A DNA stretch of 24,645 bases from a virus: IMG/VR virus record IMGVR_UViG_3300030380_003390, positions 1-24,645 of that record; one strand, 5' to 3'. The notes under the pieces are model-generated. The model was not told the origin of the DNA and searched no databases. It was given only the letters and a program-made list of their open reading frames with translations. The translations under genes and the position numbers were made by a program. This document shows, piece after piece, positions 4,123 to 22,762 of this stretch (its first letter is position 1; each line of letters opens with the position of its first letter).

Positions 4123-6039
4123 ATGTCAAACAAACAAAAAAACACACTTTGTACAGCGGGAGACTGCACCGTTCCATTACCAGAAGGTCGTAGAAAATAC
4201 TGTAGTAACAAGTGTTCAGAACGTACTAAGAAGAGAGCATATAGAGCTAGTAAATCTACGGAGGATTTTCAACAAATAAAAGAAGTAGATGAACAAGTAC
4301 AGAAGCGTAGAGGAGATTACTACGCCATTATGAAGAAAAAAAATTTTTTTGACGATATCTTAAATGGGGACAAGACGAAAAAACAGGTATCGGATATACT
4401 ATCCTGCAGTCCTGCAACAGTGAGTCGAGCTATGGCAGCGTATCTAGAAGATAAAGCAAAAGAAGCCGAATACGAAAAACGATCTACAGCAACAGTGGGG
4501 GAGATACAGGAAGCCGACGTAGACGACTTCGTAAAGTTTAGAGATGAGTATTTCTTAACAGAACAAAATAAAAAATATGAAACTCCAGAGTTCCAAAGGA
4601 AGTGGATTTCTGCTATCTTAGATACTATACAACATGGAAAAAGGTTGATGATCTTGTCTCCACCTAGACATGGTAAGACAGATTTGTTAACACACTTTTG
4701 CGTATACATGATTTGTAAAAATCCAAATATACGTATCATGTGGTGTGGTGGTAACGAAGATATTGCCAAAAACAGTGTTGGTGCAGTATTAGATCATTTG
4801 GAGAACAATGAAGGACTCATACAAGATTACGGAGATTGGGACGGATTTAGACCTGCTAATCGTTCAGGAAAAAGTTGGTCGTCCAGTCAATTTACTGTTG
4901 CAACTAGAACAGTCTCTGGTATTAAGTCGCCAACTCTTGTCGCAATTGGAAAAGGAGGTAAGATCCTTTCCAGAGACGCAGACCTTATTATTGCAGACGA
5001 CATCGAAGATCATGGAACAACTGTGCAACCAAGTGCTAGAGAAAACACAAGAAACTGGTGGACTACAACATTACAATCACGTAAAGAGGAACACACAGGA
5101 ATGGTCTGCATTGGATCAAGACAGCACCCCGACGATTTATACCATCACCTCTTAGATAACAGAGCATGGGAATCTATTATAGATAGAGCGCATGACTTAG
5201 AAGTACCACTAGAAGACGAAACTATTGATCATACTAAACACATGTTGTGGTCAGAAAAAAGAAGTCATAAATGGTTATTAGAACAATTGTCTGCAGCAGA
5301 GACAACAGGTGGTAGAAATATATTTGAAATGGTATATCTAAATAAAGCTATACCTGATGGCATGAGTTTATTTACAGCAGAAGCAGTAGATAGTTGTTTA
5401 GACAAATCTAGAAAACTAGGTGACATACCTCCACACACTACATTGATAGCAGGACTCGATCCGGCAAGTACCGGATACCAGGCAGCAGTGCTTTGGGCAT
5501 ACAATGTAAAAACACAACAAGTATGGTTGGTAGATATAAAAAATGATCAAGGTGGTGGTATTAAAAAAGCACATGACCTTATGAAGGAATGGTATGACAA
5601 GTATTTCTTATCACATTGGATCATAGAAGAAAACGGATTCCAACGTGCTATTGGACAAGATAGAGATATTAAATTTTGGGCAGCTAATCATGGTGTACGT
5701 ATAGAAGGACATCAGACATACAAAAATAAATGGGATCCTGTATTTGGTGTAACCAGTATGGTCGGTATGTATGAAAACCAAAAGATAAATTTAGCATGGG
5801 GGGACGCTGCAACAAAACGTAAAGTCAATATATTTAGACAACAGCTTTTATATTTTTCACAAGCAGGTGCTTCTAATTCACGTAATGTAAAAACAAAAAC
5901 TGACTTAGTTATGGCAAGTTGGTTCCCTATGAAACGTATACGTACTAATGTAAAAATGATGTTAGCGGAAGCAGAGAGCGACTATACTCCTAGTTATAGT
6001 TATTATAAAAATAGCGAATACAACGAGGTTTTTTGGTAA
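4123..6039 (+). CDS. terL: Terminase large subunit with fused N-terminal zinc/HTH region
   Basis: 638 residues; motor and nuclease that cuts the concatemer and pumps DNA through the portal. Walker A is SPPRHGKT (residues 179-186), Walker B LIIADDIE (288-295), the coupling motif GSRQHPDD (331-338). The C-terminal RNase H-type nuclease shows GLDPAS (Asp 446), IIEEN (Glu 502/503) and KTDLVMA (Asp 594). Before the ATPase lie about 110 extra residues: Cys 10, 15, 27 and 31 form a C-x4-C-x11-C-x3-C zinc-finger-like array, followed by a helix-turn-helix-like stretch (about 84-108, with QVSDILSCSPATVSRAM). These look like a DNA-recognition module of the kind usually held by the small subunit; no separate small-subunit gene is visible in this window. 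The start has a weak ribosome binding site behind a structured leader. It shares a base with the portal gene. Confidence 0.93.
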   Translation: MSNKQKNTLCTAGDCTVPLPEGRRKYCSNKCSERTKKRAYRASKSTEDFQQIKEVDEQVQKRRGDYYAIMKKKNFFDDILNGDKTKKQVSDILSCSPATVSRAMAAYLEDKAKEAEYEKRSTATVGEIQEADVDDFVKFRDEYFLTEQNKKYETPEFQRKWISAILDTIQHGKRLMILSPPRHGKTDLLTHFCVYMICKNPNIRIMWCGGNEDIAKNSVGAVLDHLENNEGLIQDYGDWDGFRPANRSGKSWSSSQFTVATRTVSGIKSPTLVAIGKGGKILSRDADLIIADDIEDHGTTVQPSARENTRNWWTTTLQSRKEEHTGMVCIGSRQHPDDLYHHLLDNRAWESIIDRAHDLEVPLEDETIDHTKHMLWSEKRSHKWLLEQLSAAETTGGRNIFEMVYLNKAIPDGMSLFTAEAVDSCLDKSRKLGDIPPHTTLIAGLDPASTGYQAAVLWAYNVKTQQVWLVDIKNDQGGGIKKAHDLMKEWYDKYFLSHWIIEENGFQRAIGQDRDIKFWAANHGVRIEGHQTYKNKWDPVFGVTSMVGMYENQKINLAWGDAATKRKVNIFRQQLLYFSQAGASNSRNVKTKTDLVMASWFPMKRIRTNVKMMLAEAESDYTPSYSYYKNSEYNEVFW

Positions 6040-8471: not shown

Positions 8472-11400
8472 ATGGGCGTTTTTCATTACGACAATCCAAA
8501 GTCTGAACAAGACTTATACAAAGAGCTACGACAAAGAAAAACTCAATGGACAAGAGCGCAATCTGCTGTAAATAAAGAAGACGCTGCACGTGCTACAGCA
8601 ATATCACAGTTGTATCCTAATTTTTCACCAGATGTTATAACATCATTAACAATGTTGCAGGTCAAACCTGAATCAGAAGTATTGAATACATTATCTCAAA
8701 GAATAATAGAACATAATAAAAAAAGTCTTGTAGAAAAAATATCTGATCCATTAAAAGGTGCTGTAAGGTTTGGATTACTAGCATTAGAAGATTTATATAG
8801 AACAACAGTTGATAGACCTTTAAACTCTATGATTGCTGCAACAATAGGTGATAATGCAGAAAACTTATCATTTGCAGACGCATATAAACAATCTGGTAGT
8901 TCTACAGTTAAACAAGTATTTAAAAATTTAGCACAAGGTAAAGAAGTAAATTTAGGTGATGGATTATTACCACAGTCAGATGTATTTGATCCAAACAATC
9001 CTAATAGCAAAATGTACGATGAATATAAATATCTTATACAATCTGGTTTTGAAGAACAACGTGCGCAAAGCATAATACAAAATCAATTAGGTTCTGCTAT
9101 CACAGAGATAGATAGAAACATGCAAGAAGACAGTGGTTTGTTTAATATTTCTACAACATTAGGTACAGGAGAGACTGTACAGACACCTATCTCATTAGGT
9201 AGAACTGTTGCCTTAGGCGTTTCAGAACCTGGTACAACAGCTTTTAACACGATATCAGGCGTACTAGACGCAGGTAAAGCATTGTTCTTAGATCCTGCAA
9301 ACTACTTAACATTAGGTGCTGCAGCAGTATCAAAGAGTAGAAAAACACTTAGAGCTAGTGATGATCTTATTGCAATGCTAAAAGGTAAAAGTGTAGAAGA
9401 TGTAAAGAAGATGACTAAAGCAGAGCTAGCTGAAATAGGTATGGTAAACAGAGGTTGGGGATTATCTTTTATTACACCTAAGTCTGTAACAGATTATCTT
9501 AATAAAGATCCAGGTGGTATGAAACTTGTTAAGTATTTATCAAAAATAGAATCAGAATCTAAATTTATGGACATTACAGGTATAAAAGATCCTGGTGTTG
9601 TAAAAGAATTTATGAGAGTATCACAAGACTTTACAAAAACTGCAGACGAAAAAATATTAGATATGGCTAATTTGTTAGATAAATCTATAGGTTTTAAAGA
9701 TATGCCATTTGGAAATATAAGACCTACTGTAGGTGCAATAGGTAAAATATTAGGTGGTACAGCAGAAGCCATAACAGGTGCTAATGTCCCTGCAGGTACT
9801 GGTGCTTTGTTTGGCGCTAAAAAAGTATTTAAGTTAGCACTTATGGATAGCAATTCTAGATCTGCACGTATCATGGCAACCTATACAAAAGACTTACCAT
9901 TACGTTATTTAGATAGTGAAAACATGCAACAATCATTTGATCAAGTTAAAAAATGGTTAGACCAAACAGATCTTAATAGGAATACAAAAGATAAATTATT
10001 AAAAGAAACAATGAATCTAAAAAACAGAGATCAATCAGGTTTATTTAGAGTAGCTACATCTATGTTGGAAGAAACAGGTAAAGACTTAGTAGAAAACGGT
10101 GGAGTATCTGCACAAGACGCTAGAACATTTACGCGTATTTTTGAAGAAACAATTGACGATATGCGTAAATATTTTATAGATGGTTACACAGGTGATAACG
10201 TTAGACAACCAGGTATGAAGATGAAACCTATTGTACTAGAAGGTAAGATGGCTTCAGTACCTGACGCACACCTTACAACAGAATTTATTAATAGAACTAT
10301 ACCTATGCCAGACGCAGGACAACTTGCAAAAGCTATGAACAGTATGGCAATACTAAGAAATAAAATGGGCGGCACAAAAGCATTTGATGATTTCTTAGCT
10401 AAATATCCTAAGAAAATGCAAAAAGGTATTGCAGGAAGATCAGTTGATTGGTACTACACAGAGTTTTGGAAACCTGCTGTATTGTTACGTGGTGCATGGT
10501 TATTACGTGTTGTAGGTGAAGAACAGCTACGTATGTTTACTAGAGGTTACGACAACATATTTTCTAGACCATTATCAATAATATCTTTAGGTGTAGCAAA
10601 AGCTACAGGTGCAGGTAAAGAAGCTGCACAAGCAAAACGTTGGACACAAAAAGATGTAGAGTTTAAAGATTTGCTAGGTAATCCATTAGATGAAAGTTTA
10701 GAGTGGCAACAAGGTTCTTCACGTATGCGTGGCTCTAATAACAACGATGAGTTGTTTGGTGGTGCGCAACGTAATCAAAGAAGACAACAAGGTAGACGTA
10801 AAAAAGCAGGACCACATGATTATGACATATTAGATAAAGATGACGCTATACGTGGATTAACTACAGGCGACAAAGCTAGTGGTAATAAGTTTGTAAGAAG
10901 TTGGACTAATGAAACAGCAAAACTATATCAAGATGATCTGTTTACTTTATTATTTAAAAACAAATCTAATCCTAAAGCTAGACAAAATGCACTAAAAGAA
11001 TGGGTAGAAGGTAAGTCACAAAAAGCAAAAGCTGTTATAGAAGAGTATGCAAAAGGTGGTCAAAGATACGAAGATGTTATGTCTACAGCAGGTGGTAGAT
11101 ATGCTTATGCTAAATCTATAGAAGCAAGACTTCATCAAGCTGCAGGTGGTGCATTTGACGAAGACGTAACAATATTAGAAGATCTTATGAACAAGTTAGA
11201 GTTTGAAGATATAGATTTTAGTAAAAATCCATTTCCATTACGTATAGATAAACCACGTAATGAAGATCTATATAACCTACTTACAACAGGAAAACTAAAA
11301 CATATTGCAACAGAAGCAACTGATGGTGTATGGACTGACTCTGCTTTACTTACACCTGCACAAATAAAAAATGCAGCTAGTTCTGTAGAGCATGGCGGCA

Positions 11401-13997
11401 AGACTATGTATCTTATTAAAGAAGGTAATGGTTTAGATGGCATAGAAACACTAGAAGATTTGTACAAAATATTTGGTAAAGGTTTTACAAAACTAGATGA
11501 CAAGAGTATGCGTAAAGCAGCTAACACATACTATGACTCAATACTAAATAATTACATAGAGGATTTACCACAATTTGTTACTGCACCACTTGATGGCACA
11601 GTATTAGATGATACAAAATGGATAGAGAGATTTGTTAATAAAATGTTTGATGAGATCATGGGACAAAGAACAGATAATGCTTCTAGGTCACCTGTATTTA
11701 GACAAGCATATTGGCGTGCTATTTATGATTTATTGCCAAGAATGACTCCTGCAATGCGTACAGTATTGTTAGAAGGTAAGTCATACAGACAAGGTGGCAA
11801 GACTATAAAAGTAAGTGGTGCTAGAAAATCTAATATACCTGACGAAAACCTATTAGCAAGTATAAAAGCAGACATAGGTTTACCAAGTGTTAAGTTACGT
11901 AAAAGAGATACAGAAATTAATTTAGATTTATTTGAACGAAGAGTTGCAGAACTTAATGCTGCAGACGCAAAGCAAGGTACAAAGTATATAGACAACACAA
12001 AAGATATACAAAAGGCACAACAAGATGTTTCTATTTATAAAAGAAAACAACAAAAACTTATTGACGATATAGATGATCAAATAAACAAAGCTGATGACGA
12101 TATAGTTGATGATTTACTTGCACAAAAAGAATCTCTAATAGATGAGATGAATGATGGAATAAAAACACGTAATGCTGCAATAGATGAATTAGGTGTAGCT
12201 TCAGGTTTTGATAATAATTTTATAGACGCAGAGTATGTAGATAACTTTGCAAAAGCTATAGCACTAGAAGAACTACAAGGTTTGTTATACGATCTAAGTA
12301 AGCGTAGTAAGATTACTTACAATTTAAGAGGTATATTTCCATTTGGTGAAGCATACGTAGAAATATTATCTACATGGGCTAAGTTACTTAAAGAGAATCC
12401 AGAGATTGTAAGAAGAGGTCAAGTAACAGTTAATGCTGCACGTGACGAAAATCCATTTAGTCCTGTAGAAGGTGAAGGGTTTTTATCAGAAGATGAAGTT
12501 ACAGGAGAAGAAATATTTTATTATCCAATGGTAGATGATTTAGTATCAGACGCTATATTTGGTCAAGATAGAAATGTAGGAGTAAGATTACCAGGTTATG
12601 CAGGTTCTCTTAACATTGCATTAGAAGTTGTACCAGGTATTGGTCCTACAGCTGCTATACCTGCAGCATTCTTTTTAGAAGGTACTCCTAAATTTACAGA
12701 GACACAAAAGTTTTTATTTCCTTATGGTCTACCTACAGTTAAAACACCAGGCGATTTAATACAAGAAGCAGGTGTACCGTCATGGTTAAAGAACGGTGTA
12801 CGTGCTGCTTTTATGTTTAACGAAGACGCACCTCCAGGTGAGTTATCACGTATTGCAAGTAATACAACTATTGATGTATATAGAGTACTAAAAGCAAATG
12901 GTGAAGATGATATGACACCAGAAGCACAACAAAGATTACTAGAGAAATCTAGAAGCATTGGTAAAGGTTTGACTCTAATAAAAATGTTTTCACAGTTTGT
13001 AGGTCCTACAGGATTAAATCCTAGATTTGATATAGGCGATCCTAAGAATGCAGGTCAAGTATATTCTTTACAAATACTTGCAGATAGATACAGAGAACTT
13101 ATAGAGACACCACCTAAAGATCCAGTTACAGGTCAATTTTTATTTGCACCTGGTGATAACTATTCTGCTACAAAATATTTTATAGATGAGTTTGGTTTTA
13201 ATCCATTAGATATAGCTACACCTAAATCTGTAGTTGTAGAACCAAGACCAGTAGATGAACGTGGTGTACAGTTTGAAAAAGAAAATCCAGAGTTATTTGA
13301 AGATTATTCACTTACAGCATTTTATGCAGTTCCAAATGGTGGTGGTGGTCCATTTGATTATGAAGCATATACAAGAACTATATATAACGAGCAAAGAGAA
13401 CCACTTACACCAGAAGAATGGTTAGCAACACGTAACCAAAGATTAGGTGAGTTTTTTATGGAAGAAGAGAGAATTTCTACTTTAACACAATTTGATATTA
13501 CAGATCCATACCAAGCTAAACAAAGATCTAGATTGTTGTCACTTAAAAGAAATATAGCTGCACAAAAGTATCCAGGATTCGATACAACAATACCTGGTTT
13601 ACCACAACGTGGTACATTAGACGCACAGTTTGAAGAATTAAAAAGGTGGGAAGATAGTCCTAAATTACGTAAAACAGAAACAGGTAAAGCTGTTGCACAA
13701 GTGTTAGATTATATAGGAATACTAGAGAAGAAATCATTAGGTAGAGGTTTATCATCTAACGGTTGGCGTACATCACGTACAATGTTAGTTGAAAGACAAC
13801 AACTTAGAGATTTCATAGGACAAATATCAGTATCTAATGATGATTTTTATGTTATTGCACAAAATCTACTGTTACCATTATTCCAAGAGAGGACACAGTT
13901 CTTAGAGGATTTAGAGTACGATTATGATACAATGGTTGAATACGGTACATATTTACCTACAACAAACATTAGTAATGTGCAGCAGGGAGAAGCGTGA
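8472..13997 (+). CDS. Giant virion-associated protein, probable internal/ejection protein (1841 aa)
   Basis: One uninterrupted frame of 1841 residues, the largest gene here. It begins one base after the previous stop with little ribosome binding site, so coupling is likely. It is mostly helical and polar. Visible parts: a Gly/Ala-rich, weakly hydrophobic stretch about 250-290; a coiled coil about 1177-1241 rich in Lys, Asp and Gln; a conserved-looking FPFGEAYVEILSTWAKLL around 1289-1306; and another hydrophobic Gly/Pro/Ala stretch about 1373-1403. Aromatic FPFGE..W patches of this type recur in very large phage internal virion proteins. Size and place suggest a protein ejected with the genome; no polymerase, protease or lysozyme motif is visible. 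It lacks the repeated all-helical look of a tape measure. It ends in a GTGA overlap with the next gene. Confidence 0.6.
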   Translation: MGVFHYDNPKSEQDLYKELRQRKTQWTRAQSAVNKEDAARATAISQLYPNFSPDVITSLTMLQVKPESEVLNTLSQRIIEHNKKSLVEKISDPLKGAVRFGLLALEDLYRTTVDRPLNSMIAATIGDNAENLSFADAYKQSGSSTVKQVFKNLAQGKEVNLGDGLLPQSDVFDPNNPNSKMYDEYKYLIQSGFEEQRAQSIIQNQLGSAITEIDRNMQEDSGLFNISTTLGTGETVQTPISLGRTVALGVSEPGTTAFNTISGVLDAGKALFLDPANYLTLGAAAVSKSRKTLRASDDLIAMLKGKSVEDVKKMTKAELAEIGMVNRGWGLSFITPKSVTDYLNKDPGGMKLVKYLSKIESESKFMDITGIKDPGVVKEFMRVSQDFTKTADEKILDMANLLDKSIGFKDMPFGNIRPTVGAIGKILGGTAEAITGANVPAGTGALFGAKKVFKLALMDSNSRSARIMATYTKDLPLRYLDSENMQQSFDQVKKWLDQTDLNRNTKDKLLKETMNLKNRDQSGLFRVATSMLEETGKDLVENGGVSAQDARTFTRIFEETIDDMRKYFIDGYTGDNVRQPGMKMKPIVLEGKMASVPDAHLTTEFINRTIPMPDAGQLAKAMNSMAILRNKMGGTKAFDDFLAKYPKKMQKGIAGRSVDWYYTEFWKPAVLLRGAWLLRVVGEEQLRMFTRGYDNIFSRPLSIISLGVAKATGAGKEAAQAKRWTQKDVEFKDLLGNPLDESLEWQQGSSRMRGSNNNDELFGGAQRNQRRQQGRRKKAGPHDYDILDKDDAIRGLTTGDKASGNKFVRSWTNETAKLYQDDLFTLLFKNKSNPKARQNALKEWVEGKSQKAKAVIEEYAKGGQRYEDVMSTAGGRYAYAKSIEARLHQAAGGAFDEDVTILEDLMNKLEFEDIDFSKNPFPLRIDKPRNEDLYNLLTTGKLKHIATEATDGVWTDSALLTPAQIKNAASSVEHGGKTMYLIKEGNGLDGIETLEDLYKIFGKGFTKLDDKSMRKAANTYYDSILNNYIEDLPQFVTAPLDGTVLDDTKWIERFVNKMFDEIMGQRTDNASRSPVFRQAYWRAIYDLLPRMTPAMRTVLLEGKSYRQGGKTIKVSGARKSNIPDENLLASIKADIGLPSVKLRKRDTEINLDLFERRVAELNAADAKQGTKYIDNTKDIQKAQQDVSIYKRKQQKLIDDIDDQINKADDDIVDDLLAQKESLIDEMNDGIKTRNAAIDELGVASGFDNNFIDAEYVDNFAKAIALEELQGLLYDLSKRSKITYNLRGIFPFGEAYVEILSTWAKLLKENPEIVRRGQVTVNAARDENPFSPVEGEGFLSEDEVTGEEIFYYPMVDDLVSDAIFGQDRNVGVRLPGYAGSLNIALEVVPGIGPTAAIPAAFFLEGTPKFTETQKFLFPYGLPTVKTPGDLIQEAGVPSWLKNGVRAAFMFNEDAPPGELSRIASNTTIDVYRVLKANGEDDMTPEAQQRLLEKSRSIGKGLTLIKMFSQFVGPTGLNPRFDIGDPKNAGQVYSLQILADRYRELIETPPKDPVTGQFLFAPGDNYSATKYFIDEFGFNPLDIATPKSVVVEPRPVDERGVQFEKENPELFEDYSLTAFYAVPNGGGGPFDYEAYTRTIYNEQREPLTPEEWLATRNQRLGEFFMEEERISTLTQFDITDPYQAKQRSRLLSLKRNIAAQKYPGFDTTIPGLPQRGTLDAQFEELKRWEDSPKLRKTETGKAVAQVLDYIGILEKKSLGRGLSSNGWRTSRTMLVERQQLRDFIGQISVSNDDFYVIAQNLLLPLFQERTQFLEDLEYDYDTMVEYGTYLPTTNISNVQQGEA

Positions 13998-15694
13998 CAG
14001 AAGAATATAAACAGTCGATAGTAGACAGTATTATTGCGCAAAGGCAATTAGTAGAGACTGATCCATTTGTAAAAGAATTAAATGCCTATGTTAAAGAAGA
14101 GATATCTGATTCTTTATTTATTGCAAAAGTAAATACTGCATTGAAGATATACGATACAGCACAATCACAAGATTCTGTATCTGGTTTAGGTATGACCAAT
14201 GTAACAAAAACAGTTTTCACAAATGCACTAAATGACGCAATATCTGCAACCGAACTAGAAGGATCTCCTGCAGGATATTCTCCTGGTATGTACGAAACAT
14301 GGTTAGTTAATACACCAATGAACATAAGAACAGAAATACTAAAAGGTATGGACGTATCTGCAGGTGTTATAGCAGCAGATGAACCAGAAGATTATTTTAA
14401 TTATCTTGTTGATAAGTTAGACGAATGGTATGACTCTACAGGACAAATAGGTGCATTAGTAAAACCTGGTGGCGGTAAAGGTGTTGTTATGTTTTCTACA
14501 GATGAGTATGACAGATATAAAAAGAACTATGACAATCCAGAAGATACTATGCAAATATTTAGAGATGTAGAACCTGGTAGAACAAAAGTACCTAAGCAAG
14601 GATTTAGAGCAGAACCTACAGTTTTATATGAACCTATTATGTCAGGTGAAGCAGGCAATTATGAATTTAGTGGTGAGTATAACGATAGAGTTAAAGACAT
14701 AAGTGATAAAACATACAAGACTGTAAAAGAAGCAGGCGGTGCTATATCAATAATTAATAATGCTACAGGAGAAGTAGAACAAAAAGTTGTAACAGATAGT
14801 GAATTTGTACAAATATCAGAAGGTCAATTAGAAGGTGGATACACAGTAATACAGAGTCAAGAAGCAGCAATAGTAAATCAAGCAAAAGAATCTTTATTAG
14901 GACAAAGTGCGTTTTCTGGTAATTATGGTTTGTTTGGTGGTATTACACCAGGATATTCTGTATATAAGAATCCTGATTTAGCAGCAGTGTTTGAAGAAGG
15001 CAGAGAACTTACACCTAGTGACATGGCAGCAGAAACAATAACACTTACAGAAGAAGATGTAAAAAATAGATATGGTAATCAAGATCATATACAAATAGGT
15101 TTTAACATGTTGCCACAAGAGAGATTAGCTGTACAAACAGATTTATTACAAGCAGGATATTTAAGTTATGATGATTGGTTTTTTGAGCAAGGTAGTTGGG
15201 GATCAGCAAGTCAATCAGCTATGTTATCAGCTATGACAAATGCTAATTATGAGTTAGCAGATATAGGTACACACCTTGCAGCAGAAAAAGATAGATTATA
15301 TAAACGACCACCTTTACTACCTAAAGTGTTTGTAGAACCTAGTCCATCAGCTATAAAGACAGAGATAGATGGTGCATTACGTTCTATAGGTATTGACAGA
15401 GAATTGTCAGAAGCAGAGATGGTTGCTTTATCAGATTTTTATGTATCTAGTAGTAAGAACTACGAAACAGCAGTTGCAGATTTTAACAAGAATTATGATT
15501 TAGCGCAACGTATGTTTCCAGGTGCAGATAAAAACCTTACTGTTCCAGAGACACCGACTGCTAGTCTAGAAGAATACGCTGACGGCTTATTTGGTGCAGA
15601 ATCAGCAGCAATGGAAAAAGCTGAAAAGGAACGTAATGATCTTAGCTACTTGTTTACTACTCTCGACACTATGTCCAGGTTGGCTAGTGGTTAG
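13994..15694 (+). CDS. Probable virion protein (566 aa), GTG start
   Basis: GTG 13994 overlaps the previous TGA by 4 bases and follows GGGAGA. The protein is acidic, with helical ends and a strand-rich centre about residues 195-285 (including IINNATGEVEQKVV). The C-terminal third (about 430-566) is helical with several Tyr/Phe/Trp patches. No catalytic motif. Its position between the giant protein and the lysozyme, and similar composition, suggest it works with them, perhaps as a partner in the ejected complex. The last 58 bases may also be read in another frame as an N-terminal extension of the lysozyme. Confidence 0.6.
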   Translation: MTEEYKQSIVDSIIAQRQLVETDPFVKELNAYVKEEISDSLFIAKVNTALKIYDTAQSQDSVSGLGMTNVTKTVFTNALNDAISATELEGSPAGYSPGMYETWLVNTPMNIRTEILKGMDVSAGVIAADEPEDYFNYLVDKLDEWYDSTGQIGALVKPGGGKGVVMFSTDEYDRYKKNYDNPEDTMQIFRDVEPGRTKVPKQGFRAEPTVLYEPIMSGEAGNYEFSGEYNDRVKDISDKTYKTVKEAGGAISIINNATGEVEQKVVTDSEFVQISEGQLEGGYTVIQSQEAAIVNQAKESLLGQSAFSGNYGLFGGITPGYSVYKNPDLAAVFEEGRELTPSDMAAETITLTEEDVKNRYGNQDHIQIGFNMLPQERLAVQTDLLQAGYLSYDDWFFEQGSWGSASQSAMLSAMTNANYELADIGTHLAAEKDRLYKRPPLLPKVFVEPSPSAIKTEIDGALRSIGIDRELSEAEMVALSDFYVSSSKNYETAVADFNKNYDLAQRMFPGADKNLTVPETPTASLEEYADGLFGAESAAMEKAEKERNDLSYLFTTLDTMSRLASG

Positions 15695-16448
15695 CGAACA
15701 AGATATGACAATATCTCCTGAAGGTATTGAATTTTTAAAAAATAAAGAAAAATTAGAATTAGAAGCATACGACGACGGTACAGGTGTGCAAACTATTGGT
15801 TATGGTCATACAGGTAGATCATCTGGTACTCCAGTAAAACCAGGCACAAAAATAACAATAGAACAAGCTGAACAATTATTACTAAATGATTTAAAAGAAC
15901 ACGAGTTAAGAGTAAGAAATCGTATGAATAATTATGGTATTACATTAGATCAAAGAGCTTATGATTACATGGTAATTGCAACATTTAATAGAGGTAGCGC
16001 TGTAGCAAATGAATCTTTTTACAAAGCAGCAGCTAATAAAGATTATGGAAAACTTGCTGTGCTTATGTTAGATAGTATTAGTGGATCAGACAAAAATGTA
16101 AAAGAAGGTTTAACAATAAGAATAAACGATGAAATAGAGTATTTACAAACAGAGCCACAACCTACAACAACTACTACATCTACTACAACTTCTACAATTC
16201 CTAGCACTACAACAACTACAACACCTAAGGTTGAAGATAACGAAACACCTTTAGAAGATGAACGTAGAAGAAAACAACGTGAAGCGTTAGCAAAAAAAAC
16301 ATTTATAGAAGATGACGTAGAAGAAGTATTTAAATCTTTCCAAACTATTGTTAAACAATTTTTTGGCATAATACCTGGTGGTCCTAAAGCAGAAGGTAAG
16401 TATGGATTACTAGGTGATCAAATATCTAAGATGGTAAAGAGGGACTAA
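15687..16448 (+). CDS. GH24-type lysozyme (muramidase) with Thr/Ser linker and C-terminal domain
   Basis: Hydrolyses the sugar backbone of peptidoglycan. From GTG 15687 (253 aa) the catalytic triad of T4-type lysozymes is complete: Glu 21, Asp 30 and Thr 36, spaced E-x8-D-x5-T, followed by IGYGHT (37-42); the helical part with ATFNRGSA matches the family's usual FN.G stretch. A 20-residue Thr/Ser linker (about 160-179) joins an unassigned charged C-terminal domain of about 70 residues. GTG 15687 overlaps the previous stop by 8 bases. An in-frame ATG 15636 with a better AAAAGGA site would add a 17-residue extension with a hydrophobic run (ILATCLLLSTLCPGWLVV). No holin gene adjoins, and it lies among virion genes, so it may be virion-borne, an endolysin, or both. 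Confidence 0.85.
   Translation: MVSEQDMTISPEGIEFLKNKEKLELEAYDDGTGVQTIGYGHTGRSSGTPVKPGTKITIEQAEQLLLNDLKEHELRVRNRMNNYGITLDQRAYDYMVIATFNRGSAVANESFYKAAANKDYGKLAVLMLDSISGSDKNVKEGLTIRINDEIEYLQTEPQPTTTTTSTTTSTIPSTTTTTTPKVEDNETPLEDERRRKQREALAKKTFIEDDVEEVFKSFQTIVKQFFGIIPGGPKAEGKYGLLGDQISKMVKRD
16164..16223 (+). repeat. ACA/ACT-rich microsatellite encoding the Thr/Ser linker
   Basis: Twenty codons, 15 of them Thr (ACA or ACT) with a few Ser, one Ile and one Pro. The run is in frame in the lysozyme gene and separates the catalytic domain from the C-terminal domain. Repeats of this kind can change length by slippage. Confidence 0.75.
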
Positions 16449-18331
16449 TGGCAAGAGATCCAAAAGACGATCCATATTATAATCCTGATTTTTCTCCTGA
16501 AGTAAATGAAGTTACAAATGATTTTACGTACAAAAAATTTGCAGATAAACAAGTTACTGGTGACGCAGTAATAATAAGAAAAAGAAATAACTTAGGTGAT
16601 TTTGATGTATTGCTTATTAAAAGAAAAAGAGGACCACATCAAGGTGGATTTGCATTACCAGGTGGTATATACGAAGAAGGTATGGATACACTAGAAGATT
16701 TTATTGGTAGAGAAGCATTAGAAGAAGTTGGTTTACAAGAGTCAGATATTGTAAATAGTTTTGACTTAGAACCTAAATTAGACAGATTTGATTGGGACGC
16801 AAGAGCAGGTAAAGGTGTAGATGTTTATGGCAAAGTATTTATAGTAGATGGTGACTTTGTACCTATAGCAGCAGATGACGCTTTGTCAGCACAGTTTATA
16901 AATATAGATGATATTGTAAGTGGCAAAGTAGATCTTGCATTTGGTCACGCAGAATGGATATTTGATAGCTATGGTCGTGGTAAAGCAGCAGAATTTACTG
17001 TAGGTAAAGGTCGTGACGATCACATGAAACTTGCAGAAATTGTTAAAGAAAACAAAAAACGTAACCAAGATTTTATATTAGAAGTAAACGAAAAAAGAAA
17101 ATTTGATAATTTTAATATTATTGATTTAACACTAGACAGTGAGTTTGATATGTCAGCACCAGATGATGTTGGTGAATTATTTAAAGCTGATCCAGAAGTA
17201 AATCAGTCAGGCGCTATGGACGCATTGTCTAATGCACTTCCAGATAATTTAGATGAAACAGATTTATCTGATGAAGATAAACGTATGATAGAAAAATACA
17301 GAGAAGATAAAGCAGACTTTGAGAAATTAGTAACAGAAGGTCAAGCAGAAATAACAGATGATGACATTGCAGATTTAGGACTTGAAGAAAATGATTTATC
17401 TGACGGTGACGCAATGACAGAAAAATTTTTAGATGAAGGTGATAGTTTAGATTTAACAGATGAAGAGAGAGCAGCATTACTAGATGATATTGAACAAATA
17501 GACAAAGCTAATGATCCTAGAAGGTTAGGCGGATTAGATCCTAATGCAGAAATACCTGATTCACCAAAAGATCTAGGTGACGAAGATTTACTTGATCTAG
17601 CAAGAGAATTAGGAATAGTAGAAGAAGGACCTATGGATATATCAGGATTGTCTGATGACGCAAAAGGTTTAATAGGTGATCTTGCTGATGATGAAACAAA
17701 AGCACAGTTTTATGATTTAAATGATATAGAAAATTTTGCTAATGGTAATCAAAGAATTTCAGCAGAACAAGCTAAAGAACTACAAGATATGACTGGAATG
17801 TTTCTAGATAAAACAGATGAAGTAGTAAATAAATTACCAATAGAAAAAGTTGTTAAAACTAGATTAAAGAAAAAATTAGCAGAAATGACAGTAAAATGGA
17901 CAACATTTTCTGGTGCAGGTGAGTTGTTAGATATATATGAAACAGGTGTTTTATTGTTTTACGGACTTGTTGCAGCAAAACCAGAGCTAGAAAAACTTGC
18001 TACAAACTATATGATTGATATGTACAACACAATGGCAGAGCCATACGGTGCAAAAATTAACAGAGAAGAATATACACCTGATTGGAATTATATAAACGAG
18101 CAGTTAGAAAACGCAGAGAAGATTACACCTACAGATATAATTATTAAAAAAACAGGAGAAGTTATAGAAGGTGCTGCTGAAACTGGTATGGTTACAGGTT
18201 TTGGCTATGTACCAACAACTAAGGATAAATTGAACAAAACATTGGTTCAACCAAAACCAGTAGAAGAGAAGGTTGAGGATCCAATGTATGATAGAATAAG
18301 AAGAACATTTAGTGGAAAGTTTACAAAGTAA
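16448..18331 (+). CDS. Nudix-domain protein fused to a long acidic virion-type protein (627 aa)
   Basis: Starts on TAATG after GAGGGA. Residues about 35-180 form a Nudix hydrolase domain: strands with VLLIKRKRGPHQGGFALPGG (54-73), then the Nudix box ending in REALEEVGL (88-96). Between GG and RE lie 14 residues, one more than in the common box, and Met 79 stands where Glu is usual; the same 14-residue spacing occurs in CoA-pyrophosphatase-type members. The metal-binding EALEE helix is intact, so activity on a nucleoside-diphosphate-type substrate is plausible, but the substrate is unknown. The remaining about 430 residues have a very acidic middle (about 200-420, many Asp/Glu) and a helical C-terminus. 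Such proteins are normally small free enzymes; here it stands in the structural block. Confidence 0.75.
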   Translation: MARDPKDDPYYNPDFSPEVNEVTNDFTYKKFADKQVTGDAVIIRKRNNLGDFDVLLIKRKRGPHQGGFALPGGIYEEGMDTLEDFIGREALEEVGLQESDIVNSFDLEPKLDRFDWDARAGKGVDVYGKVFIVDGDFVPIAADDALSAQFINIDDIVSGKVDLAFGHAEWIFDSYGRGKAAEFTVGKGRDDHMKLAEIVKENKKRNQDFILEVNEKRKFDNFNIIDLTLDSEFDMSAPDDVGELFKADPEVNQSGAMDALSNALPDNLDETDLSDEDKRMIEKYREDKADFEKLVTEGQAEITDDDIADLGLEENDLSDGDAMTEKFLDEGDSLDLTDEERAALLDDIEQIDKANDPRRLGGLDPNAEIPDSPKDLGDEDLLDLARELGIVEEGPMDISGLSDDAKGLIGDLADDETKAQFYDLNDIENFANGNQRISAEQAKELQDMTGMFLDKTDEVVNKLPIEKVVKTRLKKKLAEMTVKWTTFSGAGELLDIYETGVLLFYGLVAAKPELEKLATNYMIDMYNTMAEPYGAKINREEYTPDWNYINEQLENAEKITPTDIIIKKTGEVIEGAAETGMVTGFGYVPTTKDKLNKTLVQPKPVEEKVEDPMYDRIRRTFSGKFTK

Positions 18332-19573
18332 ATGCCAGTAGTAGAGAAATCAGAAAATAAATTAATAAATACTATATCTAAAGATTTTGAGATATGGGAA
18401 GAGATAACAGAATTTGGTAGTAAATTTTATTTAGTAGCACAATTACCTGAATTTGAAGGTGCCGCAGGTGCTTTTACATGGCGTTATGATATAACAGATT
18501 ATAACGTTATAAAGGATAAAACAGCTAGTGGGGATTTAGTAGCAAATGTTGTTGTTGATAGTAATTACAATATTGTAGAAGGTACTTCAGATATTACAGG
18601 AGAAGAATATAACAATAGTTTTTATTTTGGTAATGCTAGCCAGTTATTATTTAACACAGCAGAACCAGGCGCACAACCTTATGATCATCTTGTAAATGCA
18701 CTTATGGAAGAATCCAAATATAGTGAATGGATATTATCAGAGACTGATGATGGTAGATTAGATTTTTTAGCAATAGCAATAGAAGCAGCGTTAGAAGGAC
18801 AACAAGTACGAGCAGCAGATTTAGAACGTACTACATGGTGGCAAACACATACACCTCAAGAGAGAGCAGCGGCAGAATTATTTGCAAGTGATCCTGCACA
18901 ATACGCACAAAAATCTTTAAATGCACAACAAACTATTGTTGATGGCATGATTGCAAGAGGTGTGCAAACAATTAATCCAGATGTTGTTGCAGGTCTTACT
19001 AAGTTAGTAAACACAGGTGTTATACCTGATGATCAAGAACTAGGAAGAATACTAGACAAAATGGTCAATGATCGTATTAGATATACAATTAGTCCAGAAG
19101 TACAAGCAGTTCTTACAGGACAAAGTTTCGATACTATTTTAGCTACAAATGAATTAGCAAAAACAATTGATCAAAAAATAGGACCTGGTGCTAGTGAGAA
19201 CTATGATTTAGAAGCAATACTACAAGAAGGTCAAGCAAATCCTGCGTGGTATAACGAAGTATTTATACCAGAATTAGAAGGTGCATTTCAAAATAAATAT
19301 TCACAATTTAAAGGTACTAATGTTAAAAGTTATGAAACTGCTGCGGGTGCTTTTAGAAGTGAATGGATTGGTATTACAGGACAAAGAGCTGATGAAACTA
19401 CAAACGAATGGCAAAAGTTTTTAGCAACAAATGATGTCAAAGAACGTGAAGATATAGCATTTGCAGCTGCAGCAAAACTAGGTACACAAAAGTACAGAGA
19501 TACTTTAGAAGCAAGAATGACAAGCGTACTAGGTAAAGCAGGTCAAAGAGCTACAGGAAATAGTAGATTCTAA
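18332..19573 (+). CDS. Probable virion protein (413 aa)
   Basis: ATG 18332 follows the previous TAA directly, with a weak GGAAAG upstream. The N-terminal part (about residues 1-90) is strand-rich, the rest helical and Ala/Gln-rich, with ERTTWWQTHTPQERAAAEL around 172-190. No membrane or catalytic motif. It ends on a TAATG shared with the next gene. Composition and place suggest an internal or tail-associated protein of the same group as its neighbours; no family recognised. Confidence 0.6.
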   Translation: MPVVEKSENKLINTISKDFEIWEEITEFGSKFYLVAQLPEFEGAAGAFTWRYDITDYNVIKDKTASGDLVANVVVDSNYNIVEGTSDITGEEYNNSFYFGNASQLLFNTAEPGAQPYDHLVNALMEESKYSEWILSETDDGRLDFLAIAIEAALEGQQVRAADLERTTWWQTHTPQERAAAELFASDPAQYAQKSLNAQQTIVDGMIARGVQTINPDVVAGLTKLVNTGVIPDDQELGRILDKMVNDRIRYTISPEVQAVLTGQSFDTILATNELAKTIDQKIGPGASENYDLEAILQEGQANPAWYNEVFIPELEGAFQNKYSQFKGTNVKSYETAAGAFRSEWIGITGQRADETTNEWQKFLATNDVKEREDIAFAAAAKLGTQKYRDTLEARMTSVLGKAGQRATGNSRF

Positions 19574-20871
19574 TGAGTATATTACAAAGATTTTTAGAAA
19601 TAGAGAGACAATATAGACCACCTACAAATCCTGTATTGACTGGCGATAGAGAGCTAAGTGCTGATGATGATATAGGTGCTATTAGAGAAGAAGCAGCACA
19701 AAGTGAAGCAGTACAAGCTGCAAGAAGACGTAGAGAGTTTATAGCACAACAAGAAGCCGATAGACAAGCAGCAGCATTAAGAGCGCAAGAAGAAGCTGCA
19801 GCAGCACAAGCATTACAAGACGCAGAAGCAGCAGCAGCAAGAGAAGCAGAAGCTGCAAGGATTGCTGCACAAAACGCAGCTAATGAAGCAGAAGCAAGAA
19901 GACTTGCACAAGAAGCAGAACGTTTAAGATTAGAGCAATTACGTCTACAAAATTTAGCTAACAATCAACCACCACCTCCTCCTCCTGGACAACAAATAAT
20001 AATTCCTGGTGATCCTGTAGAAGACTTTGATGGTTTAACATTTGCAAAAGAAAATTATTCATGGTTAGGCGATGAACTTATAACAAAATTTATAGATGAA
20101 TTTAATACAAACGGTGGTGATGAACAAGAAGCAATAAGATCTGTAAGAACTACACAAGCATACAAAGACAAGTTTCCAGGTATATTTAGAGAAGATGGTG
20201 TAACTATACGTTCAGAATCTCCTACACCAGAGTTAGATTATATAAAAAGAAGAGAAGATTATTCTAACTTATTACAAGATTACAATTTAAATCCTGACTT
20301 TTTTGAAGGACAAATTGAAACATTATTTATGAATGATGTGTCACCTAGAACATTTGAAGATAGATTAAGTACAGCTTATAACGCATTGTTTAATCAGTTC
20401 GACGCAGTAAAACAATACTATGTTAACAATTATCCTAATGTGTTTCCTAGTACAGAAGACATAACAGATGAAACTATATTTGCTAGTTTTATATCAGAAG
20501 ACTTATCAGAAGAAATTATTCAACAACGTGTAGATGTATCACAAATTGGTGGTGCTTTTGCAGAACAAGATTTTGCCATATCTTCAGAGCAAGCTACAAG
20601 ATTAGTTAGCGCAGGTTTGACAGGTACTGGTGCGCAACAGTTAGCAGCTAGAGCTGAAACACAATTACCAAGACTACAAAGATTAGCTAGAAGATTTACA
20701 GGTAGAGAAGATATATTTGGTTTGTCAGAATTTATTGAATCAGAAGTATTCGGTTCAGGTGTAGCAGATCAAATAAGAGACAGACTAGAAGCAGAAGCAC
20801 AAACAGCATTTACAAGAGAAGGTGGTGCTGCTGTTACTGCTGCAGGTGTAACTGGACTAGAGGAGGTCTAA
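19573..20871 (+). CDS. Coiled-coil virion protein with Ala-rich N-terminus (432 aa)
   Basis: Starts on TAATG with AGGAAA upstream. Residues about 35-128 form a long, highly regular Ala/Glu/Arg/Gln coiled coil. A poly-Pro run (about 133-138) then separates the C-terminal part. That part has a repeated-looking helical pattern around 155-200 and 210-235 (RTTQAYKDKFPGIF, then ELDYIKRREDYSNLL); this AYK..F.G plus Y...Y pattern recurs in large internal virion proteins of uncultured phages. Its reverse strand carries a long Ala/Ser-coding shadow that is not a gene. The call as a virion protein is inferred from composition and context. Confidence 0.6.
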   Translation: MSILQRFLEIERQYRPPTNPVLTGDRELSADDDIGAIREEAAQSEAVQAARRRREFIAQQEADRQAAALRAQEEAAAAQALQDAEAAAAREAEAARIAAQNAANEAEARRLAQEAERLRLEQLRLQNLANNQPPPPPPGQQIIIPGDPVEDFDGLTFAKENYSWLGDELITKFIDEFNTNGGDEQEAIRSVRTTQAYKDKFPGIFREDGVTIRSESPTPELDYIKRREDYSNLLQDYNLNPDFFEGQIETLFMNDVSPRTFEDRLSTAYNALFNQFDAVKQYYVNNYPNVFPSTEDITDETIFASFISEDLSEEIIQQRVDVSQIGGAFAEQDFAISSEQATRLVSAGLTGTGAQQLAARAETQLPRLQRLARRFTGREDIFGLSEFIESEVFGSGVADQIRDRLEAEAQTAFTREGGAAVTAAGVTGLEEV

Positions 20872-21715: not shown

Positions 21716-22762
21716 ATGGGTGCAATATCAGGTGCAAATCCGATAGTCGCTAGTGATATCAATAACTTCACTGGTGAATTATTTAAAATAACACCACATA
21801 GAACTCCTCTCCTTGCAGCAGCAGGTGGTTTGAACGGCGGAAATGCTATTAATAGCACATTCTTCCAGTTTCAAACACAAGACAATGCAGTTGTTACTTC
21901 CGTTACTCCTGATGACGAAGGTGGTTCACCTAACTATTCAGGTAGAAACAGAAGCGCACAACAGGGCGTTCTTCAGATTTTCCACGAAGCAGCACAAGTA
22001 TCTTATACAGCACAAGCTGCGTCTGGTGAAATCGTACCTTTCCAATTATCTGGAAACTACAAGAACTCCGATCCTGCATTATCTTTAGAGGGTAATAACG
22101 CAATCTCTGATGAGTTAGCTTATCAGATGGAATTAGTACTGGAAACAGTAGCTAAGAAGGTTGAGTTCCAAGCATTTAATGGAACATACAACGACGGAAC
22201 ATCAGGTGATCGTCAAATGAGAGGTCTTAAAGCACATCAAGATCTATCAGGCGGTAACTCTGTAAATAACGACGACGGTGCAGGTTCTCCTGCCGCACAA
22301 AAAATCAACTGGGACATCATTGCTTCTGCAATGAAAACTCTTTATGACGCAGGTGCGCCAATGAGACAACCAGTTCTTTTCGTTAGCCCAACAATGTTGT
22401 TGGATCTAAACAAAGAATTAGTTAAAGCAACAGTCGGATCTGTTAATTACGGAATCCTACCAAGAGACAGAAATGTCGGAGGTGTTGACATTGATACAAT
22501 CGTTACACCATTCGGTTCATTAGGTCTCGCATTATCTGACTACTTGCCTGCAGGAACCATTGCCGGTTCTAAGCAAGCATTTATCGTTGACCTTAGCTTT
22601 GTCAAACCAGTATTCCTTAACATTCCAGGTTTCGGAACTATGTTTGTTAGAGACTTAGATCAAAACGATCAAGCAAGAATTGCAAAAGCAGTATATATGG
22701 AAATGGCGTTCGATTTCGGACCTCAACAATATCACTGTGCAATTGACAACGTAGTTGGTTAA
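21716..22762 (+). CDS. Major capsid protein
   Basis: 348 residues; the shell subunit of the head, probably with the HK97 fold. N-terminal part: NPIVASDINNFTGELF and then RTPLL followed by Gly/Asn-rich and beta-rich sequence, a layout I associate with SU10-like capsid proteins (that family link is from memory, not a search). A central helix about 135-157 (ELAYQMELVLETVAKKVEFQ) would suit a spine helix. It follows the scaffold gene, has AAGGGA at good spacing, and is followed by two hairpins. Codon use differs from its neighbours: about 12 of 18 Phe codons are TTC, against almost all TTT in the giant gene, as expected for a very highly made protein. Confidence 0.85.
   Translation: MGAISGANPIVASDINNFTGELFKITPHRTPLLAAAGGLNGGNAINSTFFQFQTQDNAVVTSVTPDDEGGSPNYSGRNRSAQQGVLQIFHEAAQVSYTAQAASGEIVPFQLSGNYKNSDPALSLEGNNAISDELAYQMELVLETVAKKVEFQAFNGTYNDGTSGDRQMRGLKAHQDLSGGNSVNNDDGAGSPAAQKINWDIIASAMKTLYDAGAPMRQPVLFVSPTMLLDLNKELVKATVGSVNYGILPRDRNVGGVDIDTIVTPFGSLGLALSDYLPAGTIAGSKQAFIVDLSFVKPVFLNIPGFGTMFVRDLDQNDQARIAKAVYMEMAFDFGPQQYHCAIDNVVG

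What the first reader, a model, noticed from the sequence alone, without database searches (positions are those of the whole stretch)
16448..18331. Nudix hydrolase fused to a 627-residue protein within the virion gene block
Phage Nudix enzymes are usually small, free, early proteins. Here the domain begins a long, acidic protein between the lysozyme and other virion genes, with coupled translation on the left. If the protein is packaged and ejected, it would bring a nucleotide- or cap-hydrolysing activity into the cell with the DNA, for example against a defence signal molecule or NAD/CoA derivatives. The box has an unusual spacing (14 residues between GG and RE) and Met 79 at a usual Glu position.
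Basis: partly seen in the sequence, partly recalled or inferred. Interest (0 to 1): 0.62.

Follow-up and report, generated by a model that had tools for sequence, protein, structure and literature searches.

The report
Swappable enzyme cargo in phage virions
A marine phage gene makes a protein whose front is a NAD/ADP-ribose-type Nudix enzyme and whose back is a shared carrier segment; in related phages the front is exchanged for unrelated modules, which suggests that these phages load interchangeable enzymes into their particles and inject them with their DNA.

Summary
In detail: one intact 627-aa frame (16448-18331) starts with a Nudix domain (Pfam E 1.9e-8), lies between lysozyme and other head-block genes, overlaps the lysozyme stop (TAATG) and is acidic (pI 4.3). 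The fusion recurs in independent contigs; in 20 whole relatives a Nudix occurs only in this gene or nowhere. The domain is closest to the NadM/NrtR ADP-ribose clade, keeps the catalytic glutamates and is strongly constrained (dN/dS 0.08). Relatives show more: the gene is a fixed, hypervariable slot. A C-terminal carrier is kept while N-terminal modules are swapped or lost; where the slot is empty, the carrier's last 50 residues sit on the lysozyme. Other slot proteins hold GNAT or HPr-like domains. In many slot genes a 28-bp linker, conserved as DNA and with a palindromic core, separates modules; this window lacks it. Best reading: a virion-packaged, modular injected effector, a new carrier family of the polyvalent/polymorphic kind. 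Packaging, ejection and substrate are inferred; no virion or enzyme data exist. Packaged phage Nudix proteins were already proposed (PMC9503650).

The parts
16448..18331 (+). Slot gene: 627-aa protein, N-terminal Nudix cargo + acidic linker + C-terminal carrier
16535..16981 (+). Nudix domain (residues ~30-178), NadM/NrtR-like
   Evidence: Pfam residues 40-168; fold and structure matches; NCBIfam ranking
16661..16735 (+). Nudix box, residues 72-96: GGIYEEGMDTLEDFIGREALEEVGL; 14 residues between GG and RE, REUXEE intact
17003..17749 (+). Acidic, low-constraint linker (residues 186-434), partly shared with slot proteins that have other N-termini (L008, L010, L053, L062, L067)
17750..18328 (+). 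C-terminal carrier domain (residues 435-627), mostly helical; common to slot proteins with unrelated cargo
   Evidence: HMM E 1e-58 to 1e-90 in 16 slot proteins; also in linker-fetched ORFs
18278..18328 (+). Conserved C-terminal tail (DPMYDRIRRTFSGKFTK), also found at the end of the lysozyme where the slot is empty
15591..16448 (+). Lysozyme gene directly upstream (hydrophobic N-terminus, MILATCLLL...)
   Evidence: Pfam Phage_lysozyme E 4.8e-18
18332..19573 (+). 413-aa gene of the virion block, right-hand border of the slot
   Evidence: conserved in position in relatives
8472..13997 (+). 1841-aa gene of the virion block, no library match; likely internal virion protein (inference)
   Evidence: conserved position
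13994..15694 (+). 566-aa gene of the virion block, no significant library match
   Evidence: conserved position
19573..20871 (+). 432-aa gene of the virion block (Ala-rich N-terminus), PHROG_8424
   Evidence: conserved position
21716..22762 (+). SU10-type major capsid protein, anchor for the survey
   Evidence: Pfam E 7.5e-48; anchor scan

Best explanation
The gene is the cargo slot of a virion-delivered effector. The C-terminal carrier (perhaps with its last ~15 residues as a tag) takes the protein into the particle with the other internal proteins; on infection the protein is ejected, and the N-terminal Nudix domain hydrolyses the diphosphate of an ADP-ribose-type molecule (ADP-ribose, a NAD+-derived immune signal, or NAD+) at the start of infection. 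Across relatives the N-terminal modules are exchanged while slot and carrier stay, so each phage lineage carries different injected activities. Shown here: Nudix domain with conserved catalytic residues under purifying selection, fixed slot, common carrier, module exchange, carrier tail on the lysozyme where the slot is empty. Inferred: packaging, ejection, activity, substrate and the anti-defence purpose.
For: Nudix fold and NadM/NrtR affinity; catalytic REUXEE glutamates kept in all 22 distinct slot Nudix domains (R is K in three); dN/dS 0.08 for the Nudix part against 0.52 for the linker and 0.31 for the carrier; always in the virion block, tightly coupled; Nudix found only in the slot in whole relatives; same carrier with unrelated N-termini, and clean swaps L074/L065, L002/L068, window/L008, L004/L005; carrier tail fused to lysozyme in empty-slot loci; two carrier lineages match by profile, E 3e-6. 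Packaging of such proteins has been argued on the same grounds (PMC5512222, PMC9503650).
Against: No virion proteomics or biochemistry. The carrier has no homologue of known function. Only one enzymatic domain is recognised in the window form. The best-known neighbours in the block (1841, 566, 413 aa) are themselves unidentified, so 'internal virion protein' rests on gene order. No NAD-based defence of the (unknown) host was examined.
Confidence: 0.6

Rival explanations
1. Late, non-packaged enzyme: the Nudix protein works in the producing cell (nucleotide or NAD housekeeping, or NAD-RNA decapping) and the C-terminal part only fixes it to an assembly site or membrane.
For: The gene lies in a late-type block; the C-terminal part holds a moderately hydrophobic helix (KD 1.25 over 19 residues); NudC is also among the structural matches.
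Against: No NadV partner for NAD salvage in 12 records; housekeeping does not explain wholesale exchange of the module in one slot, nor the carrier tail on the lysozyme.
Confidence: 0.15
2. Packaged, but the Nudix domain is a ligand-binding module without catalysis (a sponge or sensor, as the Nudix domain of the NrtR repressor senses ADP-ribose).
For: NrtR (3gz8) is the second-best structural match; one-residue insertion in the Nudix box and Asp for Glu; some relatives have a long insert inside the box.
Against: The metal-binding glutamates of REUXEE are kept throughout; close relatives have the canonical spacing.
Confidence: 0.12
3. Polymorphic toxin: the slot carries antibacterial toxin modules that act on the host or on competing cells rather than counter-defence enzymes.
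For: Polymorphic architecture; ART-like motifs seen by eye in some modules (L018/L028/L056 KLYHGS...GFHVGTY; QYE in L004, L045, L062).
Against: No Pfam, PHROG or PDB support for ART in these modules and the L028 model failed (pLDDT 36). No tyrosine or serine recombinase in 19 records, so a lysogeny-linked toxin is less likely.
Confidence: 0.07

Closest known systems
Virion-packaged phage Nudix proteins, T4 NudE-like and NadM-like clades (PMC9503650)
   Same: Nudix of an ADP-ribose/NAD clade encoded in late genes, some beside the virion lysozyme or fused to head proteins; proposed to be packaged and injected
   Different: That paper lists fusions to MuF, portal and capsid protease; here the partner is an unrelated C-terminal carrier, and the whole module is exchanged or absent in close relatives
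Polyvalent proteins of phages and conjugative elements (PMC5512222)
   Same: Effector-type modules combined in one polypeptide encoded among virion genes; GNAT, lysozyme and NUDIX contexts are mentioned there
   Different: One fixed slot with a shared C-terminal carrier; one recognised enzymatic domain in the window form; DNA-conserved linker between modules in relatives
MuF polymorphic toxins (PMC5576092)
   Same: A virion-linked constant part with a variable effector part
   Different: No MuF domain; polarity is reversed (variable N-terminus, constant C-terminus); no integrase or resolvase found in 19 records
T4 Alt and N4 virion RNA polymerase (as described in PMC5512222)
   Same: Enzyme packaged in the head and injected; the N4 enzyme has a separate C-terminal encapsidation part
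   Different: No sequence relation found; cargo here is exchangeable
NadM bifunctional enzyme and NrtR repressor Nudix domains
   Same: Closest Nudix relatives by sequence and fold; ADDA and LAFxHxE motifs
   Different: No adenylyltransferase or HTH part; fused to a phage carrier instead

Membership tests
Nudix superfamily | Significant match to the Nudix profile | tested here: met
   Pfam PF00293 34.9 bits, cut-off 21.1
Nudix superfamily | Nudix box GX5EX7REUXEEXGU | tested here: inconclusive
   GG and REUXEEXGU intact; spacing 14 instead of 13 and Asp80 in the Glu place
Nudix superfamily | Nudix fold | tested here: met
   AlphaFold model, Foldseek E down to 1.6e-9 to Nudix structures
NadM/NrtR-type ADP-ribose clade | Nearest relatives by sequence and structure | tested here: inconclusive
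   NadM models rank first in NCBIfam but far below whole-protein cut-offs; 2fml, NrtR and NadM lead the fold list, NudC close behind
NadM/NrtR-type ADP-ribose clade | ADP-ribose hydrolysis or binding | not testable with these tools
   needs biochemistry
Polyvalent proteins (PMC5512222) | Encoded among virion genes | tested here: met
   conserved order with capsid, portal, lysozyme
Polyvalent proteins (PMC5512222) | Two or more domains of disparate activity in one polypeptide | tested here: inconclusive
   window: one enzymatic domain plus an uncharacterised carrier; several distinct modules in L041/L045
Polyvalent proteins (PMC5512222) | Transferred into the host with the DNA | not testable with these tools
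   needs virion proteomics and injection assays
MuF polymorphic toxins (PMC5576092) | MuF domain | tested here: not met
   no MuF in the Pfam scans of the window protein and 26 slot relatives
MuF polymorphic toxins (PMC5576092) | Temperate phage | tested here: inconclusive
   no tyrosine or serine recombinase in 19 records, several of them ~40 kb; records may be incomplete

The most novel reading that the evidence does not exclude
The slot is a cassette system: a 28-bp DNA element (AGACACACCTACAAATGTAGTAGATGAT, palindromic core CTACA-AA-TGTAG, read in frame as DTPTNVVDD) is kept as DNA, not merely as protein, and lets marine phages shuffle injected-effector modules (including Nudix in giant relatives) between diverged genomes, building combinatorial virion cargo.
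Probability: 0.3. Interest if true: 0.85.

Novelty: new variant of a known kind. Interest (0 to 1): 0.64.

Why it matters
If right, a widespread group of uncultivated marine phages keeps one address in its virion gene block for interchangeable injected enzymes. The slot then serves as a locator for early-acting anti-host or anti-defence proteins that family searches miss; the carrier and its tail give a testable signal for protein packaging; and the DNA-conserved linker makes the question of how effector modules move between phages directly testable.

Tried and rejected
(1) Separate early Nudix gene in relatives: 20 whole records searched; every hit lies in the slot protein. (2) Assembly artefact: rejected, same fusion in several independent contigs. 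(3) NAD salvage (NadV partner): none in 12 records. (4) ART assignment of other cargo modules: resemblance by eye only; no Pfam, PHROG, NCBIfam or PDB support, L028 model pLDDT 36, and two ART-like groups do not match each other by profile. (5) Homologue of the carrier, the 1841-aa or the 432-aa protein in the PDB: none convincing. (6) Host: WhiB absent; the capsid protein matches cultured actinobacteriophages at about 24-32%, but MAG contigs with a related portal are labelled Rhodobacteraceae, Actinomycetota and Flavobacteriaceae: left open. (7) A window-type linker (GGTGAYGCAATGACAGAA) scanned as DNA gave 13 stretches, of which only L109 (the contig of L001) was recognised as a slot; the rest were not examined. 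(8) The 26-bp linker core is not in the window, even with 3 mismatches. (9) Site-specific recombinase for the linker: no PF00589 or PF00239 in 19 records.

Full report
Observation. The window is a 24,645-base virus record, with terminase (4123), portal (6033), a 1841-aa and a 566-aa gene, lysozyme (15591), the 627-aa gene (16448-18331), 413-aa, 432-aa and scaffold-like genes and an SU10-type capsid gene (21716), all in one direction. The 627-aa frame is intact and has a Nudix domain at residues 40-168 (Pfam E 1.9e-8). Its start overlaps the lysozyme stop (TAATG) and the next gene starts directly after its stop. It is acidic, pI 4.3, mostly because of the linker at residues 186-434. GG-RE spacing is 14; relatives L071, L074, L097 and L098 have the canonical 13, so Met79 reads as an inserted residue and Asp80 takes the Glu place.

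What the Nudix part is. By sequence the nearest solved structure is 2fml, with NadM and NrtR proteins further down the list. NCBIfam ranks NadM-type NMN adenylyltransferase/Nudix models first and the ADP-ribose-responsive repressor next, all far below cut-offs set for whole proteins. AlphaFold models the domain with block pLDDT mostly 66-85 and the rest of the protein poorly. Foldseek gives 2fml, ADP-ribose-bound NrtR (3gz8) and NadM (2r5w, 2qjt, 2qjo) among the top 15, mixed with NudC. The motifs ADDA and LAFxHxE, shared with 2fml, are present. Between the window and L001 the Nudix part has dN/dS 0.08, the linker 0.52, the C-terminal part 0.31 and the neighbouring 413-aa gene 0.20. All 22 distinct slot Nudix domains keep the glutamates of REUXEE; R is K in three. 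An active ADP-ribose/NAD-type hydrolase is therefore likely; substrate and activity are not shown.

The slot. With the capsid protein, the Nudix part and the C-terminal part as anchors and clustering of all open frames, gene order around this gene is conserved while the gene itself varies. The C-terminal ~190 residues are shared by proteins with unrelated N-termini (HMM E 1e-58 to 1e-90). In L004 and L005 both ends agree and only the middle differs. L074 carries the Nudix part where L065 has another N-terminus, with 86% identical bodies; L002 carries it where L068 and L064 have none. In loci such as L032, L035 and L036 there is no slot gene, and the lysozyme carries the last ~50 residues of the carrier (HMM E 1e-12), ending in YDRIKRTFSGKF as slot proteins do. 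A second lineage has its own end, GKML(D/N)R, and its carrier matches by profile (E 3e-6). Other slot proteins reach 2,318 aa. A set of 1,474-1,867-aa proteins holds a related Nudix domain (about 33-39% identity) with some 40-50 extra residues inside the Nudix box. L044 has three GNAT stretches (E 3e-17).

The linker. In L004, L041 and L045 the modules are separated by DNA repeats that encode DTPTNVVDD; L005 has it too. The exact 26-mer occurs in 63 stretches of IMG/VR; 53 of 57 distinct cases are in frame in a long ORF, and the other four lie within about 220 bases of a locus end, where a long ORF would be cut. All 43 with recognisable neighbours lie in the same gene block, below portal, the 1841-aa homologue, the 566-aa homologue or lysozyme, or above the 413- and 432-aa homologues. 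In loci fetched without using the linker, 10 of 10 DTPTNVVD peptides use the same codons, where codon usage predicts 3.75% per case; the cases are not fully independent. In 52 divergent contexts the base before the pattern, which was not searched for and is a wobble position, is always A; the first Asp codon is GAC in 98% although GAT is used for 79% of Asp codons; and the flanks drop to background at once. The core CTACA-AA-TGTAG is an inverted repeat. In L043 and L046 the linker stands just before the Nudix domain. The carrier HMM also finds a carrier in 12 ORFs that were fetched only by the linker. No tyrosine or serine recombinase was found in 19 records, so homologous recombination at the linker is the simplest mechanism; a site-specific one is not excluded. 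The window gene itself has no such linker.

How it works, most likely. The carrier places the protein in the particle with the internal proteins; it is ejected with the DNA, and the Nudix domain destroys an ADP-ribose-type molecule early. Shown: domain, constraint, slot, carrier, exchange. Inferred: packaging, ejection, substrate, purpose. The inference follows the reasoning of the polyvalent-protein paper (PMC5512222) and of the NAD/ADP-ribose survey, which already proposes that Nudix proteins are packaged, some encoded beside the virion lysozyme (PMC9503650). In 20 whole relatives a Nudix hit occurs only in the slot, and no NadV accompanies it.

Known and new. A virion-associated Nudix protein is a known proposal, and effector modules in virion proteins are known as polyvalent proteins and MuF toxins. 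What differs here: a C-terminal carrier with no known homologue in the libraries searched, one fixed slot with whole-module exchange between close relatives, a carrier tail on the lysozyme when the slot is empty, and a DNA-conserved linker. MuF membership is rejected (no MuF domain, reversed polarity). Polyvalent membership is open for the window form because only one enzymatic domain is recognised.

Limits. Nothing here shows the protein in virions. ART-like readings of other modules are by eye only. The aldolase match in L123 covers half the domain near a contig end and may be an assembly chimera. The host is unknown. The literature search covered only open-licence papers.

Noticed in passing
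L004:3571-3597, L005:4237-4262 and 4711-4736, L041:3283-3316, and L114-L175 (positions): A 28-bp in-frame linker (DTPTNVVDD), conserved at wobble positions and with a palindromic core, separates modules in slot proteins of many marine phage contigs and was seen in no other gene.
   Followed up: partly
L032:421-1380, L035:628-1584, L036:5708-6664, L040:5709-6665: Empty slot: the lysozyme gene is directly followed by the 413-aa gene and carries the last ~50 residues of the slot carrier at its own C-terminus.
   Followed up: partly
L019:207-5756, L027:619-5826, L043:1223-5644, L048:1295-5734: Giant slot proteins hold a Nudix domain whose box is split by about 40-50 extra residues between GG and the RE/KE helix, an unusual Nudix variant.
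   Followed up: no
L053:3893-4711, L062:3757-4548, L025:5682-6608, L043:5496-6599: At or beside the lysozyme position some relatives have a different protein that looks like a lytic transglycosylase (DYGLWQIND, SYGLMQID), and in giants it lies after the slot gene; judged by eye only.
   Followed up: no
L044:2-5269: A 1,756-aa slot protein with three GNAT acetyltransferase stretches.
   Followed up: no
L130:1546-3657, L134:3184-6840, L155:2648-4750, L123:6354-8405: HPr-like modules in slot proteins (over the Pfam cut-off in three records) and half of a class-II aldolase in L123, the latter possibly an assembly chimera.
   Followed up: partly
window:21716-22762; L176-L179: The capsid protein's nearest cultured relatives are phages of Mycobacterium, Propionibacterium and other actinobacteria (about 24-32% identity), but MAG contigs with a related portal disagree on the host.
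   Followed up: partly
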